DNA from: an uncultured Lachnospiraceae bacterium
GTDB lineage: Bacteria > Bacillota > Clostridia > Lachnospirales > Lachnospiraceae
Length of the DNA: 36,125 nucleotides
Direction: 5' to 3'
Assembly: GCA_902792005.1 (NCBI GenBank)
Contig: CADAXW010000010.1
Location: 1 to 36,125 of the forward strand
Translations under genes and position numbers: made by a program
The notes under the pieces: generated by a model
Database searches by the model: none
What the model saw: only the letters and a program-made list of their open reading frames with translations
What the model was told of the DNA's origin: nothing
Shown: positions 855-10,395 of the stretch, one piece after another
Position numbering within the stretch: position 1 is the stretch's first letter
How the letters are laid out: each line of letters begins with the position of its first letter

Positions 855-1985
855 ATGGGAAAAGATCTCAAAGGAAAGGAGATTGGAGCAGGAATCGTTC
901 AGCAGCCAAATGGGACATATTTTGCCAGATTTGTTGATAAATTTGGAAAGCGCAGGACGAAGAGATCCAAGAAACTACAAGAGGTAAAACAGTGGCTTGC
1001 TGATGCTACTTACATAGACCAACACAGTGACTTGGACCAGGCTACGGATATGCTCGTAGATTCCTGGTTTGATTATTGGATAGGGATAAAGAAGCAGACA
1101 GTAAGACCCAATACGGTCAGAAATTACTCAGAACGGTATGAGCGTAATATCAAGGGCGTTATTGGTAATAAACTTTTGACGGATGTTAAGCCGATTCATT
1201 GCCAGAAGATTTTTTCTAATATGGCAGACGAAGGCTATAAGACAACCACCATATACCAGACGCGGATTGCTCTTTTTAATATGTTTGAGTTTGCCAGGGA
1301 GAATGATGTACTCATCACGAATCCTTGCAAGAAATCATTAAAGAGCGATATGGGAAAGCCGTCAGATAAGAAAGAAGCCCTTACGATTGACGTTCAAAAG
1401 AAGTTCCTGGATGCTGTAGTGGGTTACAGCTACGAGAATCAGTACCGTTTCGTATTACAGACCGGTCTTCGTACAGGAGAACTTATAGGACTTAAGTGGA
1501 ATGACATCGACTTCGAAAATCGCACTATGAAGATTGAGAGGACGATGGAATATCGCTACAAGGTAGGTGAATGGAGAGTGGGTCCACCTAAGAGCAAATC
1601 CGGCTACCGTACAATTCCTCTTACAGACGAAGCGATTCGTATTCTTGAAAATCAGAGATCGAAGAATAAGAGCTTAAAGCTCGTGCCGATGGAATGGAAA
1701 GATATCGTTTTTCTTTGCAGAAAGGGAACACCGGTCAAGAACAGCACTTATGATACAGGGCTTTTTAAGTATTGCGACCGTGTAGGCATTCCGAGATTTT
1801 CAATGCATGTCTTGAGACATACTTTTGCTACCAGATGCATTGAAGGCGGGATGAAGCCCAAGACCCTGCAGAAGATTTTAGGTCATTCCAACATTGGTAT
1901 TACCATGAATCTGTATGTTCATATTACAGAAGATGAAAAGCATAGAGAAATTGACTTAGTGGCTGACGCGTTAAAAGTGGTATAA
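855..1985 (+). CDS. int: Tn916-family tyrosine recombinase (integrase)
   Basis: This site-specific recombinase integrates and excises the element. The 376-residue protein has three parts: an N-terminal arm-binding domain (about residues 8-50, AP2/Tn916-Int type, with the pattern PNGTYFARFVDKFGKRR), a SAM-like core-binding domain (about 65-165), and a catalytic domain (about 175-370). All expected catalytic residues are present: Arg206 in TGLRTGEL, a beta-strand Lys near 246-248, His318 and Arg321 in HVLRH, His344 in LGHSN, and the nucleophile Tyr354 in MNLYVH. AAAGGAGCC (843-850) precedes ATG 855 at good spacing. It is the last gene of the element, so the chromosomal junction must lie just downstream. 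The gene looks intact and functional. Confidence 0.95.
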   Translation: MGKDLKGKEIGAGIVQQPNGTYFARFVDKFGKRRTKRSKKLQEVKQWLADATYIDQHSDLDQATDMLVDSWFDYWIGIKKQTVRPNTVRNYSERYERNIKGVIGNKLLTDVKPIHCQKIFSNMADEGYKTTTIYQTRIALFNMFEFARENDVLITNPCKKSLKSDMGKPSDKKEALTIDVQKKFLDAVVGYSYENQYRFVLQTGLRTGELIGLKWNDIDFENRTMKIERTMEYRYKVGEWRVGPPKSKSGYRTIPLTDEAIRILENQRSKNKSLKLVPMEWKDIVFLCRKGTPVKNSTYDTGLFKYCDRVGIPRFSMHVLRHTFATRCIEGGMKPKTLQKILGHSNIGITMNLYVHITEDEKHREIDLVADALKVV

Positions 1986-6591: not shown

Positions 6592-8790
6592 ATGAAGAAA
6601 AGAAAGAGGAAGGTGTTCCTCCGGTGGATGCGCCGACGCCTGACACTTGTGATGGCGTTAATATCACTGGCGTTCGCAGTGCTCATCGGAACACTGGTTT
6701 ACATCAACAAAACCAAGGGCGCCAAATATGAAAAAGAGGTGCTCAGCCAGAGGAATTATGAAAGTATCACGGTTCCGTATCGGAGGGGTGATATTTTAGA
6801 TTGCAATGGCACGGTTCTTGCTACAAGTAATAAGATTTACAGCCTCATCATCGAGCCCGCGAACATTGTGAAGGACGAAGACTATCGCAAAGCAACCACG
6901 GACGCGTTGGTGAAGTTTTTTGGTGTCACAAAGGAGACCATCGATAACTGTCTGAAGGATGAGGAGTCCTTCTACAAGGTGGTAAAAAAACACCTGACCT
7001 ATGAAGAGGTTAAGGCCTTTAACGACTTCAGGGAGTCCGATGAGGGAGGAGACATCATAGGCGTCTGGTTTGAGGAGGATTACACACGCGTATATCCTTA
7101 CAAGGAACTGGGATGCCATATGCTTGGCTTCGTAGTCAGCGGAAATGAGGGGATCGGCGGTCTCGAGGGTGCTTACAATGATGAGCTGAACGGGACCAAC
7201 GGACGTACCTATGCGTATCTGAATGATAGCTATAACCTGGAACGGATCACGGAACCGGCTACCAACGGATATAATCTGGTAACCTCCATCGATGCCGAGG
7301 TTCAGAAGATCGTTCAGAAAAATGCGGAGAAGCTGCAGAAGAAGATGAATCCGAAGAACATCTCCGTTCTGGTCATGCGTCCCAAGACCTGTGAGGTTCT
7401 GGCGATGTATAACCTGCATCAGTATGATCCCAACGATGCCTATAGTCTGAAATCTACAAGGTATCAGTATCCCAAGCTTTCCGACAAGCAGTTTGAAGCC
7501 AAGATCGCGAAGCTGGATGATGAGAAACGACTGGACTCGCTGAATAAGGTATGGCGTAATTTCGTTCTCAGCGATACATTTGAGCCGGGTTCCACCTATA
7601 AGACCTTCGTCCTGGCGGGCGCGATCGAAGAGGGCGTTCTGACCGGCGACGAGACCTACTACTGTGACGGTCATCAGCAGGTGGCGGACTATGATATCTA
7701 TTGCTCCGAGCATGACGGCCACGGAACACTGAATCTGTCTCAGGCCCTTGCATATTCCTGCAATGACAGCTTCATGCAGATCGGTGCTCTGATGGGACGT
7801 ACCATCTTTGCAAAGAATCAGAGTCTGTTCGGCTTTGGCCAGAGGACCGGTATCGATATCTACGGCGAGATGGACAGCGACTCTCTGTCCTCCCTGATCT
7901 TTGATGAGGACAAGCTGAATGAAGTTGAGCTTGCAACCTCGTCGTTTGGACAGGGTGTGTCCGTTACCATGATCCAGCTGGGTACGGCATTCTGCTCCGT
8001 CATTAACGGTGGATATTACTATCGTCCGAATCTGGTGCGTCAGATCAAGGACGAGCACGGAAATGTGATCAAGAATTATGATAATATCCTGGTGCGCCGC
8101 ACCATTTCCACCGAGACCTCTGAGAAGATGTGCAAGATGCTTCAGGGCGTGGTTGAGAATGGTACCGGCTGGCGTACAGCCATCGAGGGTTATACCATCG
8201 GCGGTAAAACAGGTACTGCTGAGAAGTGGCCCAGAAATGAAGGTAACTTTATTCTTTCCTTTATCGGGTTTGCGCCGGTGGAGAATCCGGAGGTCATGAT
8301 CTATTGCGTAGTAGATGAACCGGATGTACCGGAGCAGGATATGAGTGGTGCGGGGACCACACTGTTCCAGTATATTGCCAGCGACCTCTTCCCGTACATG
8401 AACATTTACAGAACCAATGATGTAAAGCCTGAGGATATCAAAAAGGTGGATGATCCGGTGAGCCCCGTGTTCACGGAGGACAGCCCGACGGATAATGACC
8501 GTGATCCGGCCGGAGATACGGACGAGGATGATGAGGACACGGATGATGATGAGGATAAGGATAAAGAAGATGAGGAAGCCAATCCGGATGCCGAACAGGT
8601 AGAAGGAGAGGACGGAGATAATACAGACGATGGCGGCGGCGAGGACGAGGATGCCGACGAGGATACCGGCGGAGACGACGGTGAAAACGAAGATAACGGT
8701 GGCGAGGATGACGGAGATGACTCCGGAGGCGACGACACCGGAGGAGAAGACGGCGGTGAAGAAACCGGCGATGATACAGGCGGGGAGTAG
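6592..8790 (+). CDS. ftsI: Class B penicillin-binding protein (FtsI type) with acidic tail
   Basis: This is a monofunctional D,D-transpeptidase that cross-links septal peptidoglycan together with FtsW. After a basic N-terminus comes one membrane anchor (about 17-38), the PBP dimer domain (about 55-210) and the transpeptidase domain (about 240-600). The active-site motifs are intact: SxxK at Ser334-Lys337 (GSTYK), SxN at Ser389-Asn391 (SCN) and KTG at 539-541 (GGKTGTAEK). No PASTA domain is visible, unlike SpoVD. From about residue 627 to 732 the protein is almost entirely Asp, Glu, Gly and Thr with three basic residues; this extracytoplasmic tail is unusual. The ribosome site (AAGG near 6579) is weak. 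FtsI and SpoVD cannot be separated with certainty. Confidence 0.92.
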   Translation: MKKRKRKVFLRWMRRRLTLVMALISLAFAVLIGTLVYINKTKGAKYEKEVLSQRNYESITVPYRRGDILDCNGTVLATSNKIYSLIIEPANIVKDEDYRKATTDALVKFFGVTKETIDNCLKDEESFYKVVKKHLTYEEVKAFNDFRESDEGGDIIGVWFEEDYTRVYPYKELGCHMLGFVVSGNEGIGGLEGAYNDELNGTNGRTYAYLNDSYNLERITEPATNGYNLVTSIDAEVQKIVQKNAEKLQKKMNPKNISVLVMRPKTCEVLAMYNLHQYDPNDAYSLKSTRYQYPKLSDKQFEAKIAKLDDEKRLDSLNKVWRNFVLSDTFEPGSTYKTFVLAGAIEEGVLTGDETYYCDGHQQVADYDIYCSEHDGHGTLNLSQALAYSCNDSFMQIGALMGRTIFAKNQSLFGFGQRTGIDIYGEMDSDSLSSLIFDEDKLNEVELATSSFGQGVSVTMIQLGTAFCSVINGGYYYRPNLVRQIKDEHGNVIKNYDNILVRRTISTETSEKMCKMLQGVVENGTGWRTAIEGYTIGGKTGTAEKWPRNEGNFILSFIGFAPVENPEVMIYCVVDEPDVPEQDMSGAGTTLFQYIASDLFPYMNIYRTNDVKPEDIKKVDDPVSPVFTEDSPTDNDRDPAGDTDEDDEDTDDDEDKDKEDEEANPDAEQVEGEDGDNTDDGGGEDEDADEDTGGDDGENEDNGGEDDGDDSGGDDTGGEDGGEETGDDTGGE

Positions 8791-8842
8791 CCTCCTCCCG
8801 GAACGGTGGACGAACTGAGAAATCGGTGATCATGTGAATAAC

Positions 8843-8963
8843 GGGATATCCGTAGCACGTAAGCTGCATCTGCAGGAGAGACCGGCGTGGGCAAAGACGC
8901 CGGAGAAAATGTGGGGACATTTTATTACCTTTTGATCAGATGCAGCAGTGCTGATCCCTTTTT
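8843..8963 (+). ncRNA. Candidate structured RNA between PBP and murD
   Basis: A long interrupted helix can form: GGGAT (8843-8847) with ATCCC (8954-8958), AGCAC (8854-8858) with GTGCT (8948-8952), and GCTGCATCTG (8863-8872) with CAGATGCAGC (8937-8946), all perfect pairs. It encloses two hairpins: CCGGCGT (8882-8888) with ACGCCGG (8897-8903), and AAAATGT (8906-8912) with ACATTTT (8917-8923). The outer helix ends at a run of five T (8959-8963), as an intrinsic terminator would. It matches no riboswitch class I know by sequence. The gap contains no plausible ORF. It could be a riboswitch-like leader for murD and the downstream genes, a processed sRNA, or a 3' stabilising structure for the PBP message. 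Confidence 0.5.
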
Positions 8964-8964
8964 G

Positions 8965-9008
8965 CATCCTGAGCGGAGGGCTGTAATTTAGCTCTTCTGC
9001 TTGGGATG
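8965..9008 (+). promoter_or_regulatory. Long leader hairpin before murD
   Basis: CATCC (8965-8969) pairs with GGATG (9004-9008), AGCGGA (8972-8977) with TCTGCT (8996-9001), and GGGCT (8978-8982) with AGCTC (8990-8994), with a 7-nt loop and few irregularities. It ends 15 bases before the murD ribosome site (GAGGAGA, 9024-9030). Its strands can also pair with parts of the upstream structure. An alternative reading is a weak promoter, TTGCAT (8962-8967) with 16 bp to TAATTT (8984-8989). Confidence 0.45.
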
Positions 9009-9036
9009 ACGTGGTGTAAAACAGAGGAGAGTATAA

Positions 9037-10395
9037 ATGAAAGATAAAAGAGTGATCGTAGCAGGTGCCGGAAAGAGCGGGATCAGCTCCATGGGACTTC
9101 TGCTTCGGAATGGCGCGAGTGTAATACTGTTTGATCAGAATGAAGCCCTGGATAAGGAAAAGGTTCTGGCAGATATCGAGCAGAAGGACCGGGTGGAGAT
9201 CGTGCTGGGCAGCATGTCAGTTGAGACGATGAAGACAGCGGATCTGATGGTGATCAGTCCCGGGATCGCACTGGATGCTCCCTTTGTAAACCGCGTGCGT
9301 GATGCAGGTGTTCCCATCTGGGGTGAGATCGAACTGGCCTACTACTTTAACAGAGGCCGGATCGCAGCCATCACCGGAACCAACGGAAAAACAACCACCA
9401 CAACGCTGGTGGGAGAGATCTTCCGTGCAGCGGCTCCGGACAGTCTTGTGGTGGGAAATATCGGAACTCCCTTTACGCAGTTTGCCGATGACACGAAGGA
9501 GGGACAGCTGATAGCAGCGGAGATCAGTTCCTTCCAGCTGGAAACCGTTCATGAATTTCATCCGGAGGTTTCAGCGGTGCTGAATCTGACGCCGGATCAT
9601 TTAAATCGTCATTATACCTTTGAAAACTACGCGGCTGCGAAGATGCGCATCACAGAAAATCAGACTCAGGATGATATCTGCGTCATGAACTATGATGATC
9701 CGGAGGTGCTAAGGAGAGCGGAGCAGCTGAAGAATGTAAAGGTGATCTATTTCAGCCGGCTCACGGCTCTGGAGCAGGGCGTTTTCACGAAGGACGGCGA
9801 GATCATCATTCGCGATGGAGAAAAGGAAATAACCCTGATGCCGGTATCGGAGATCCGCATCCTGGGAACCCATAATGTGGAAAATGTACTCGCTGCTGCG
9901 GCCATCAGCTATTATATGGGCATTTCTACCGACATCATCCGTTCTACCATCGCCGGCTTCATGGGAGTGGAACACAGGATCGAGTATGTTCGTACCCTGA
10001 ATGGAGTTGATTACTACAACGATTCCAAGGGAACCAATCCGGATGCGGCCATTAAGGCAATCCAGGCGATGCAGAAGCCGACGATCCTGATCGGCGGAGG
10101 GTATGATAAGAAATCCTCTTATGATGAATGGATCGAAGCCTTTGACGGAAAGGTGAAGTTCCTGGTGCTTCTCGGCCAGACGGCACAGGCCATCGCGGAC
10201 TGCGCAAGGCTTCACAACTTTACACAGATCGTTTTTGTGGAGTCTCTGGAAGAGGCGGTAAAGTTCAGCTATGATCACGCAAAAGAGGGCGAAGCGGTAC
10301 TGCTGTCCCCGGCGTGTGCAAGCTGGGATATGTTTAAGAGTTATGAGCAGCGTGGAGAGCTGTTTAAGGAGTATGTAAATCAGCTGGAGGGTTAG
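9037..10395 (+). CDS. murD: UDP-MurNAc-L-alanine:D-glutamate ligase
   Basis: MurD is the cytoplasmic ATP-dependent ligase adding D-glutamate to UDP-N-acetylmuramoyl-L-alanine in peptidoglycan precursor synthesis. At 452 residues it has standard length. The N-terminal Rossmann-like part binds the UDP substrate (VIVAGAGKSGIS, about 5-16). The central Mur ligase domain has the P-loop GTNGKTTTTT at 113-122 and LNLTPDHLNRH. The C-terminal domain includes the HRIEYV and NDSKGTNPDA motifs typical of MurD. GAGGAGA (9024-9030) supports ATG 9037. It follows the structured gap and is four bases from ftsW. It is the only Mur ligase in this reduced dcw cluster. Confidence 0.96.
   Translation: MKDKRVIVAGAGKSGISSMGLLLRNGASVILFDQNEALDKEKVLADIEQKDRVEIVLGSMSVETMKTADLMVISPGIALDAPFVNRVRDAGVPIWGEIELAYYFNRGRIAAITGTNGKTTTTTLVGEIFRAAAPDSLVVGNIGTPFTQFADDTKEGQLIAAEISSFQLETVHEFHPEVSAVLNLTPDHLNRHYTFENYAAAKMRITENQTQDDICVMNYDDPEVLRRAEQLKNVKVIYFSRLTALEQGVFTKDGEIIIRDGEKEITLMPVSEIRILGTHNVENVLAAAAISYYMGISTDIIRSTIAGFMGVEHRIEYVRTLNGVDYYNDSKGTNPDAAIKAIQAMQKPTILIGGGYDKKSSYDEWIEAFDGKVKFLVLLGQTAQAIADCARLHNFTQIVFVESLEEAVKFSYDHAKEGEAVLLSPACASWDMFKSYEQRGELFKEYVNQLEG

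What the first reader, a model, noticed from the sequence alone, without database searches (positions are those of the whole stretch)
8843..9008. Candidate novel cis-regulatory RNA between the PBP gene and murD
Three stacked perfect helices enclose two hairpins and end at a T run, followed by a second long hairpin before the murD ribosome site. Pairings compete: GATGCA (8939-8944) can pair with TGCATC at 8865-8870 or at 8963-8968, and ATCCC (8954-8958) can pair with GGGAT at 8843-8847 or at 9003-9007. Duplicate strands competing for one partner, next to a terminator-like T run, are what a switch between termination and read-through looks like. It sits in the wall-synthesis operon and matches no class I recognise.
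Basis: partly seen in the sequence, partly recalled or inferred. Interest (0 to 1): 0.7.

Follow-up and report, generated by a model that had tools for sequence, protein, structure and literature searches.

The report
New structured RNA before murD
Between two cell-wall genes of a gut bacterium lies a folded RNA whose shape, but not most of its letters, has been kept in nine related species; it is a real and apparently undescribed RNA element, but not the stop/go switch first imagined.

Summary
The element is conserved: a covariance model finds it in 9 of 61 genomes of the genus (E at most 7e-12), one strong copy each, always between PBP and murD. Closing helix P3 is paired in 90 of 90 cells over nine species, 5 of its 10 pairs with changes on both sides. 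Two hairpins inside keep their letters: a GGCAAAG loop and AAATGTGGGGACATTT. G-U outnumbers A-C at paired positions, pointing to the murD-sense strand. No Rfam family matches. The two-hairpin pattern was found nowhere else except in coding frames. The switch reading fails: T run and competing pairings are not conserved, and the alternative folds cost 18.0 and 9.8 kcal/mol. Best reading: a lineage-specific mid-operon mRNA element whose closing helix presents two sequence-specific hairpins to a trans-acting factor, setting murD-side mRNA processing, stability or read-through apart from the PBP. Shown: the conserved RNA. Inferred: the factor and the effect.

The parts
8840..8960 (+). whole conserved element, as modelled by covariance models R1/R2
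   Evidence: 127 bits to R1 in the window, 55-122 bits in 8 other species (six of the nine trained R1)
8843..8847 (+). P1, 5' strand (pairs 8954-8958); not kept in L032, L033, L034 and doubtful in L013
   Evidence: 85% of cells paired; probability 0.26-0.28
8854..8858 (+). P2, 5' strand (pairs 8948-8952)
   Evidence: (77.5% of cells paired); in L013/L032 (AUUA/UAAU) and L034 (GUGUUGC/GUAAUAC) other pairs stand in its place, read
8863..8872 (+). P3, 5' strand (pairs 8937-8946), conserved closing helix of the three-way junction
   Evidence: 90 of 90 cells paired, 5 of 10 pairs with changes on both sides
8882..8903 (+). hairpin A; loop GGCAAAG 8890-8896 nearly invariant, stem covaries (4 of 7 pairs with changes on both sides)
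8906..8923 (+). hairpin B; AAATGTGGGGACATTT (8907-8922) nearly invariant in sequence, GGGG loop; no pair with changes on both sides
8937..8946 (+). P3, 3' strand
8948..8952 (+). P2, 3' strand
8954..8958 (+). P1, 3' strand
8959..8963 (+). T run; not conserved in relatives
8965..9008 (+). second long hairpin (19 pairs, one bulged base); a hairpin stands here in 8 of 9 species (weak in L012) with unrelated sequence and no T tail
9024..9029 (+). murD ribosome-binding site GAGGAG, predicted mostly unpaired
6592..8790 (+). upstream gene: penicillin-binding protein (dimer and transpeptidase domains, acidic low-complexity tail)
9037..10395 (+). downstream gene: murD

Best explanation
It is a cis-acting structured mRNA element on the murD-sense strand between the PBP gene and murD of the dcw operon. 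A closing helix of free sequence (P2/P3, 11 to 18 pairs in the predicted folds) holds a three-way junction and presents two hairpins of fixed sequence: hairpin A with a GGCAAAG loop and hairpin B, AAAUGUGGGGACAUUU. SHOWN: the structure is kept by compensatory change, is favoured on the + strand, stands at one genomic position and in one strong copy per carrier genome. INFERRED: a trans-acting factor, a protein more likely than a small molecule, recognises the two hairpins; its binding sets processing, stability or read-through of the mRNA there, so that murD, and with it ftsW and ftsZ downstream, are expressed apart from the PBP. It does not work by the proposed terminator switch, nor, in its resting fold, by hiding the ribosome site.
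For: Nine genomes carry it, all between PBP and murD on murD's strand. Covariation: 27 cells in 15 pairs changed on both sides against shuffled means of 9.7 cells and 8.1 pairs, 0 of 500 shuffles as high; slid controls give 2-8 cells. Loops and hairpin B are near-invariant while P3 and the stem of hairpin A vary, which suggests specific recognition rather than a plain hairpin. In P3 and hairpins A and B there are 12 G-U cells and 1 A-C cell; over all five helices 18 G-U and 8 A-C. Carriers fall in one supported clade of MurD (100/99). Carriers have 176-312 bases between PBP and murD; of the 26 non-carriers where I could measure the gap, 8 have 12-20 bases and 25 have 135 or fewer. The murD ribosome site is predicted 0.64-0.96 unpaired in the 8 carriers where one was recognised.
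Against: No partner factor was identified and no expression platform is conserved. The element is missing in three genomes nested in the carrier clade (G020, G035, G073), so it is dispensable or replaceable. In G017 and G074 a promoter match (11 of 12) overlaps the P2 5' strand and abuts P3; transcripts started from it would lack part of P3. The murD start codon is less open than the ribosome site in some carriers (0.13 unpaired in L009, 0.43-0.51 in L010, L011, L033). One covariation measure is weaker (further pair types 30 against 25.7, 25 of 500 shuffles as high). Shuffles overstate significance for related sequences, and alignment A4 was fitted by a model trained on six of its nine members.
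Confidence: 0.5

Rival explanations
1. A metabolite riboswitch in which ligand binding at the three-way junction switches transcription termination or murD translation.
For: Three-way junction with two near-invariant loops upstream of a biosynthetic gene. In the window a T run and complementary strands lie beside it.
Against: T run and competing strands are not conserved. Forced alternatives cost 18.0 and 9.8 kcal/mol. The ribosome site is mostly open in the predicted fold. It was found before murD only; no second gene context.
Confidence: 0.17
2. A processing and stability element: an endonuclease cuts in or beside the long helix and the second hairpin protects the new 5' end of the murD mRNA; no specific regulator is needed.
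For: A hairpin follows the element in 8 of 9 species (weak in L012) without sequence conservation. The carriers' gap is enlarged.
Against: Does not explain why the GGCAAAG loop and AAATGTGGGGACATTT keep their letters.
Confidence: 0.2
3. A processive antitermination element like EAR of the eps operon, loading a factor on RNA polymerase so that it reads through the long dcw operon.
For: Mid-operon position in a long operon; [quoted passage not shown]
Against: No Rfam hit (that EAR has an Rfam family is recalled). LoaP, a known hairpin-binding antiterminator, reached its family's cut-off in 0 of 18 genomes; one NusG-domain hit was found in each of 14 of these 18, and in the window's genome it is the housekeeping nusG between secE and rplK. 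In the other 4 (G010, G020, G035, G073) not even nusG was found, so there the search says little. LoaP's known hairpin is of UNCG type (PMC12691694, passages seen); I see no such loop here (by eye).
Confidence: 0.08
4. A fixed relic of a mobile element (MITE- or REP-like) without function.
For: Inverted-repeat architecture. Short CATCCTGAGCGGAG-type repeats lie next to it in the window and in L012, and elsewhere in the window's genome. Absent from some close kin.
Against: One strong copy and one position in each of nine carriers. No plasmid or phage match. The 14-mer of hairpin B occurs 7 times in 61 genomes, 6 of them in this element. Compensatory change shows selection on pairing.
Confidence: 0.05

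Closest known systems
mraW RNA motif (Actinomycetales; listed in Weinberg et al. 2010, PMC2864571)
   Same: A candidate structured RNA named for a gene of the same division/wall cluster; function unknown as far as I recall.
   Different: Other phylum and, by its name, other gene; its model, if in Rfam 15 (recalled as RF family), does not match here. Only the table line of the paper was seen.
EAR, eps-associated RNA (Bacillus subtilis eps operon)
   Same: Structured RNA between genes inside a long envelope-related operon; no promoter match was found in window 8600-9100.
   Different: No Rfam match here; no evidence of antitermination; structure not compared (one passage of PMC7858274 seen).
Three-way-junction riboswitches (purine class and others; recalled)
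   Same: A closing helix with two hairpins whose loops are conserved, upstream of a biosynthetic gene.
   Different: No evident complementarity between the two conserved loops (by eye), no conserved platform, no Rfam match.

Membership tests
Any Rfam 15 family | covariance-model score at or above the gathering score | tested here: not met
   0 matches in the whole window. In 8700-9100 at E up to 5 only RydC (15.8 bits, gathering 48, minus strand 8744-8803) and mir-143 (12.6 bits, gathering 60, over the second hairpin). In 8 relatives at E up to 1, three sub-threshold matches, none over the element.
Transcription attenuator / intrinsic-terminator riboswitch | conserved terminator hairpin with T run | tested here: not met
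   Directly after the helices: TTTTT, TTT, CTTATA, ACCAAT, TTTTG, AACGCC, AACGCC, TTACCT, GGGCTG in the nine carriers. Terminator scans of the window and three of the eight relatives: one weak match each in window (8958-8980), L032 and L010, none in L013; expected 0.1-0.3 each.
Transcription attenuator / intrinsic-terminator riboswitch | conserved mutually exclusive pairing | tested here: not met
   Longest exact complement between the element's 3' half and the bases after it is 3-6, shuffle P 0.14-1.0 over all nine; alternatives cost 18.0 and 9.8 kcal/mol in the window.
Translation-controlling riboswitch | ribosome site hidden in one fold | tested here: inconclusive
   Ribosome site 0.64-0.96 unpaired in 8 of 9 carriers (none recognised in L034); start codon 0.13-0.94; a ligand-induced fold cannot be seen.
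Metabolite riboswitch | specific ligand binding | not testable with these tools
   needs probing or binding experiments
LoaP-dependent antitermination | LoaP protein in the genome | tested here: not met
   0 of 18 genomes over the cut-off of NF033641; in G000 the one sub-threshold hit is the secE-nusG-rplK gene. Four of the 18 showed no NusG domain at all and are uninformative.
MITE or dispersed repeat | several copies per genome | tested here: not met
   one strong copy per carrier genome (second hits in G010, G019, G036 only at E 0.19-0.99); in the window's genome other BLAST matches are 14-29 bases at E 0.9 or worse.
Cis-regulatory structured RNA | structure conserved by compensatory change next to one gene | tested here: met
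Cis-regulatory structured RNA | changes expression of the adjacent gene | not testable with these tools
   needs a reporter experiment

The most novel reading that the evidence does not exclude
A new class of ligand- or protein-sensing RNA that tunes the murD-ftsW-ftsZ half of the division/wall operon against the PBP half, using two sequence-specific hairpins on a three-way junction and no terminator or ribosome-site switch, i.e. through an effect on mRNA processing or on RNA polymerase.
Probability: 0.35. Interest if true: 0.65.

Novelty: new variant of a known kind. Interest (0 to 1): 0.45.

Why it matters
RNA-level control inside the division/wall cluster is, as far as I know, little documented; this is a compact element in front of murD whose structure is now backed by covariation in nine species. 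If it senses a wall precursor or binds a division-linked protein, it would give a direct handle on how these bacteria balance PBP against precursor synthesis. Even if it is only a processing element, it gives a clean model of a lineage-specific mid-operon RNA that was probably gained once and, on one branch, lost.

Tried and rejected
Terminator switch: rejected. A second possible terminator, in which the 3' strand of hairpin A pairs with the GGGG loop of hairpin B ahead of ATTTTT, was suggested by the scans of L032 and L010. I set it aside by reading the nine sequences: the pairing is poor in the window and in L011, and the T stretch is part of the hairpin B stem.

Leader peptide starting at the conserved ATGTGGGGACAT (M-W-G-H): set aside by reading. 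The frame is 8 codons in the window and 14 in L009, runs much further in others and shifts in L034; no ribosome site before it is conserved. CsrA-type site in hairpin B: the loop lacks the A-N-GGA register (motif recalled, not searched). DNA operator reading of AAATGT-GGGG-ACATTT: L034 has lost a base in the right half, and the G-U excess favours RNA. A remnant of the element in G073 (a GGGCAAAGCCC hairpin in its gap): the full model, filters off, gave at most 9 bits, elsewhere in that locus.

Weak model hits in other places (E 0.01 to 1: L025-L031, L099-L103) have neither murD nor PBP within the fetched 3 kb and are taken as chance. The two-hairpin pattern gave 15 stretches in GTDB genomes: 6 are carriers; all of the other 9 lie in stop-free frames of at least 135 codons. 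One of these, L080, scores 23.2 bits to R1 (E 0.00066) and its near-copy in IMG/VR, L146, 21.7 bits to R2; both lie in one gene, which in L080 is a 244-codon frame that reads like a response regulator (naming by eye), so I take the score as coming from the hairpin letters I searched for. A tree of PBP fragments failed to display and was replaced by MurD. Literature searches for an RNA at murD or in this operon found nothing specific; they cover only open-licence PMC papers, so this is weak evidence of novelty.

Full report
WHAT IS THERE. The window is contig C10 of a 2.3 Mb draft genome. Around the finding is a division/wall (dcw) cluster: mraZ 4568, mraW 5081, a small gene with a weak DivIC match 6023, a PBP 6592-8790, murD 9037-10395, ftsW/rodA/spoVE-type 10400, a gene without Pfam match 11542, ftsZ 12353 (gene names by domain and order). 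The 246-base PBP-murD gap holds P1, P2, P3, two 7-bp hairpins, a T run and a 19-pair second hairpin at the stated places. The fold is much better than dinucleotide shuffles (z -5.74 for 8830-9030; z -5.82 for 8840-8960).

IT IS CONSERVED. A DNA search of 61 genomes (36 same-genus relatives, 24 of the order, and the window's own) gave matches at E up to 1 in 45 genomes, mostly short chance ones; five same-genus relatives stood out (E 7e-24 to 8e-6) over parts of window 8837-8962, all between PBP and murD. A model built from these six sequences (R1) gave matches at E up to 1 in 13 of 61 genomes of the genus: nine with E at most 7e-12 (G000, G002, G010, G011, G017, G019, G025, G036, G074) and four with E 0.07 or worse. 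Three of the nine (G036, G074, G019) were not in the training set. In all nine the element lies 3' of the PBP gene and 5' of murD on murD's strand, in gaps of 176-312 bases. Of 59 genomes with a MurD match I fetched the upstream region of 46: the nine carriers and 37 others. In these R1 reported the nine carriers and the antisense of one of them, at E up to 1, and nothing else. The other 13 were seen only through the genome-wide search, which scores 58 candidates per genome with strict filters.

IT IS AN RNA AND THE SHAPE IS SELECTED. On the nine-sequence alignment A4, 91.7% of 290 cells form standard pairs; 15 pairs and 27 cells show changes on both sides against shuffled means of 8.1 and 9.7, 0 of 500 shuffles as high; sliding the partner drops pairing to 40.6-47.5%. 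'Further pair types' is less striking (30 against 25.7; 25 of 500). P3 is paired in 90 of 90 cells with 5 double-changed pairs; in G036 these five all differ from the commonest pair at once. The stem of hairpin A has 4 double-changed pairs. Hairpin B has none: its letters are nearly fixed. P1 is weaker (85% of cells) and P2 as aligned 77.5%, though other pairings take P2's place in L013/L032 and L034. Eight of nine elements fold better than at least 198 of 200 shuffles; L013 is the weakest (z -1.93, 10 of 200 as good). In two (L032, L034) the lowest-energy fold does not show hairpin B. In P3 and the two hairpins there are 12 G-U cells and 1 A-C, over all helices 18 and 8, which favours the + strand. 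Caveats: A4 was fitted by a model trained on six of its members, and shuffles do not correct for kinship.

IT IS NARROW. R2 in 392 genomes of the order reported the window's genome and two weak hits (E 0.012, 0.037), and in 299 of the family the window's genome and three (E 0.012-0.028); with 9-11 candidates scored per genome under strict filters these two scans can miss copies. A pattern for the two hairpins in the genomes of 84,980 species gave 15 stretches: six are carriers; all the other nine lie in stop-free frames of at least 135 codons. The pattern allows no mismatch, so variants would be missed. Plasmid and phage collections gave nothing; IMG/VR gave one stretch, a near-copy of one of the coding hits. 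In a MurD tree of 26 rows (9 carriers, 16 non-carriers, and G081) the carriers lie in a supported clade of 13 with G081, whose contig begins inside murD so that its state is unknown, and with three genomes without the element, G020, G035 and G073, on one long branch. The tool counts three changes if G081 is taken as a non-carrier; with G081 unknown, one gain and one loss suffice.

HOW IT WORKS. The murD ribosome site is mostly unpaired in the predicted ensembles of 8 of 9 carriers, though the start codon is paired in some. What is shared is a closing helix of free sequence around two hairpins of fixed sequence, and usually a second hairpin of free sequence after it (8 of 9; L011 lacks one, L012's is weak). 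Helices that covary around loops that do not are what a recognition site looks like. I therefore commit to a factor-binding cis element that sets murD-side mRNA processing, stability or read-through (confidence 0.5), with plain processing (0.2), a metabolite switch (0.17), antitermination (0.08) and a relic (0.05) as rivals. The step from conserved structure to factor and effect is inference.

AGAINST KNOWN SYSTEMS. No Rfam 15 family matches. The mraW motif is a candidate RNA named for a gene of the same kind of cluster, in Actinomycetales (table line seen). EAR is a mid-operon RNA with antitermination function (passage seen). LoaP, which binds a UNCG hairpin (passages seen), is not found, with four of 18 genomes uninformative. 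Papers: search listings only (one search listed none); passages seen in five papers; none read whole.

CHANGES ON CHECKING. The odds did not change.

VERDICT. A real, apparently undescribed, lineage-specific structured RNA; not a demonstrated switch. Interest 0.45.

Noticed in passing
L013:1472-1500 and L032:458-486: In carriers G017 and G074 a TTGACA-17-TATACT promoter match (11 of 12) overlaps the P2 5' strand and abuts P3, so murD may have its own promoter there whose transcripts would lack part of the helix.
   Followed up: partly
window 8965-9008; L012 about 1415-1490; L091, L092: The window's second hairpin begins with CATCCTGAGCGGAG; L012's gap has three tandem GTCATCCTGAGCGGAGC copies upstream of the element, and two near-copies elsewhere in the window's genome look intergenic by eye (44 sites with up to 2 mismatches against 10 for the reversed pattern).
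   Followed up: partly
L035, L037, L057 (PBP-murD gaps of G007, G001, G022): Three non-carriers share a different piece in this gap: CACATTTTCGTGTCTTGTTC followed by a long hairpin with GCCGGCAC or CCGGCAC arms.
   Followed up: no
window 8500-8790: The PBP ends in a long acidic, glycine-rich low-complexity tail; similar tails precede the element in other carriers.
   Followed up: no
window 855-1985: A tyrosine (phage-type) integrase gene stands just upstream of a YchF-type GTPase gene, lgt and the dcw cluster.
   Followed up: no
window 8792-8797 and 9024-9029: CTCCTC right after the PBP stop is complementary to the murD ribosome site GAGGAG and pairs with it in the lowest-energy fold of the whole gap; with flanks added the site is 0.72 unpaired. 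Not seen in L009 by eye.
   Followed up: partly
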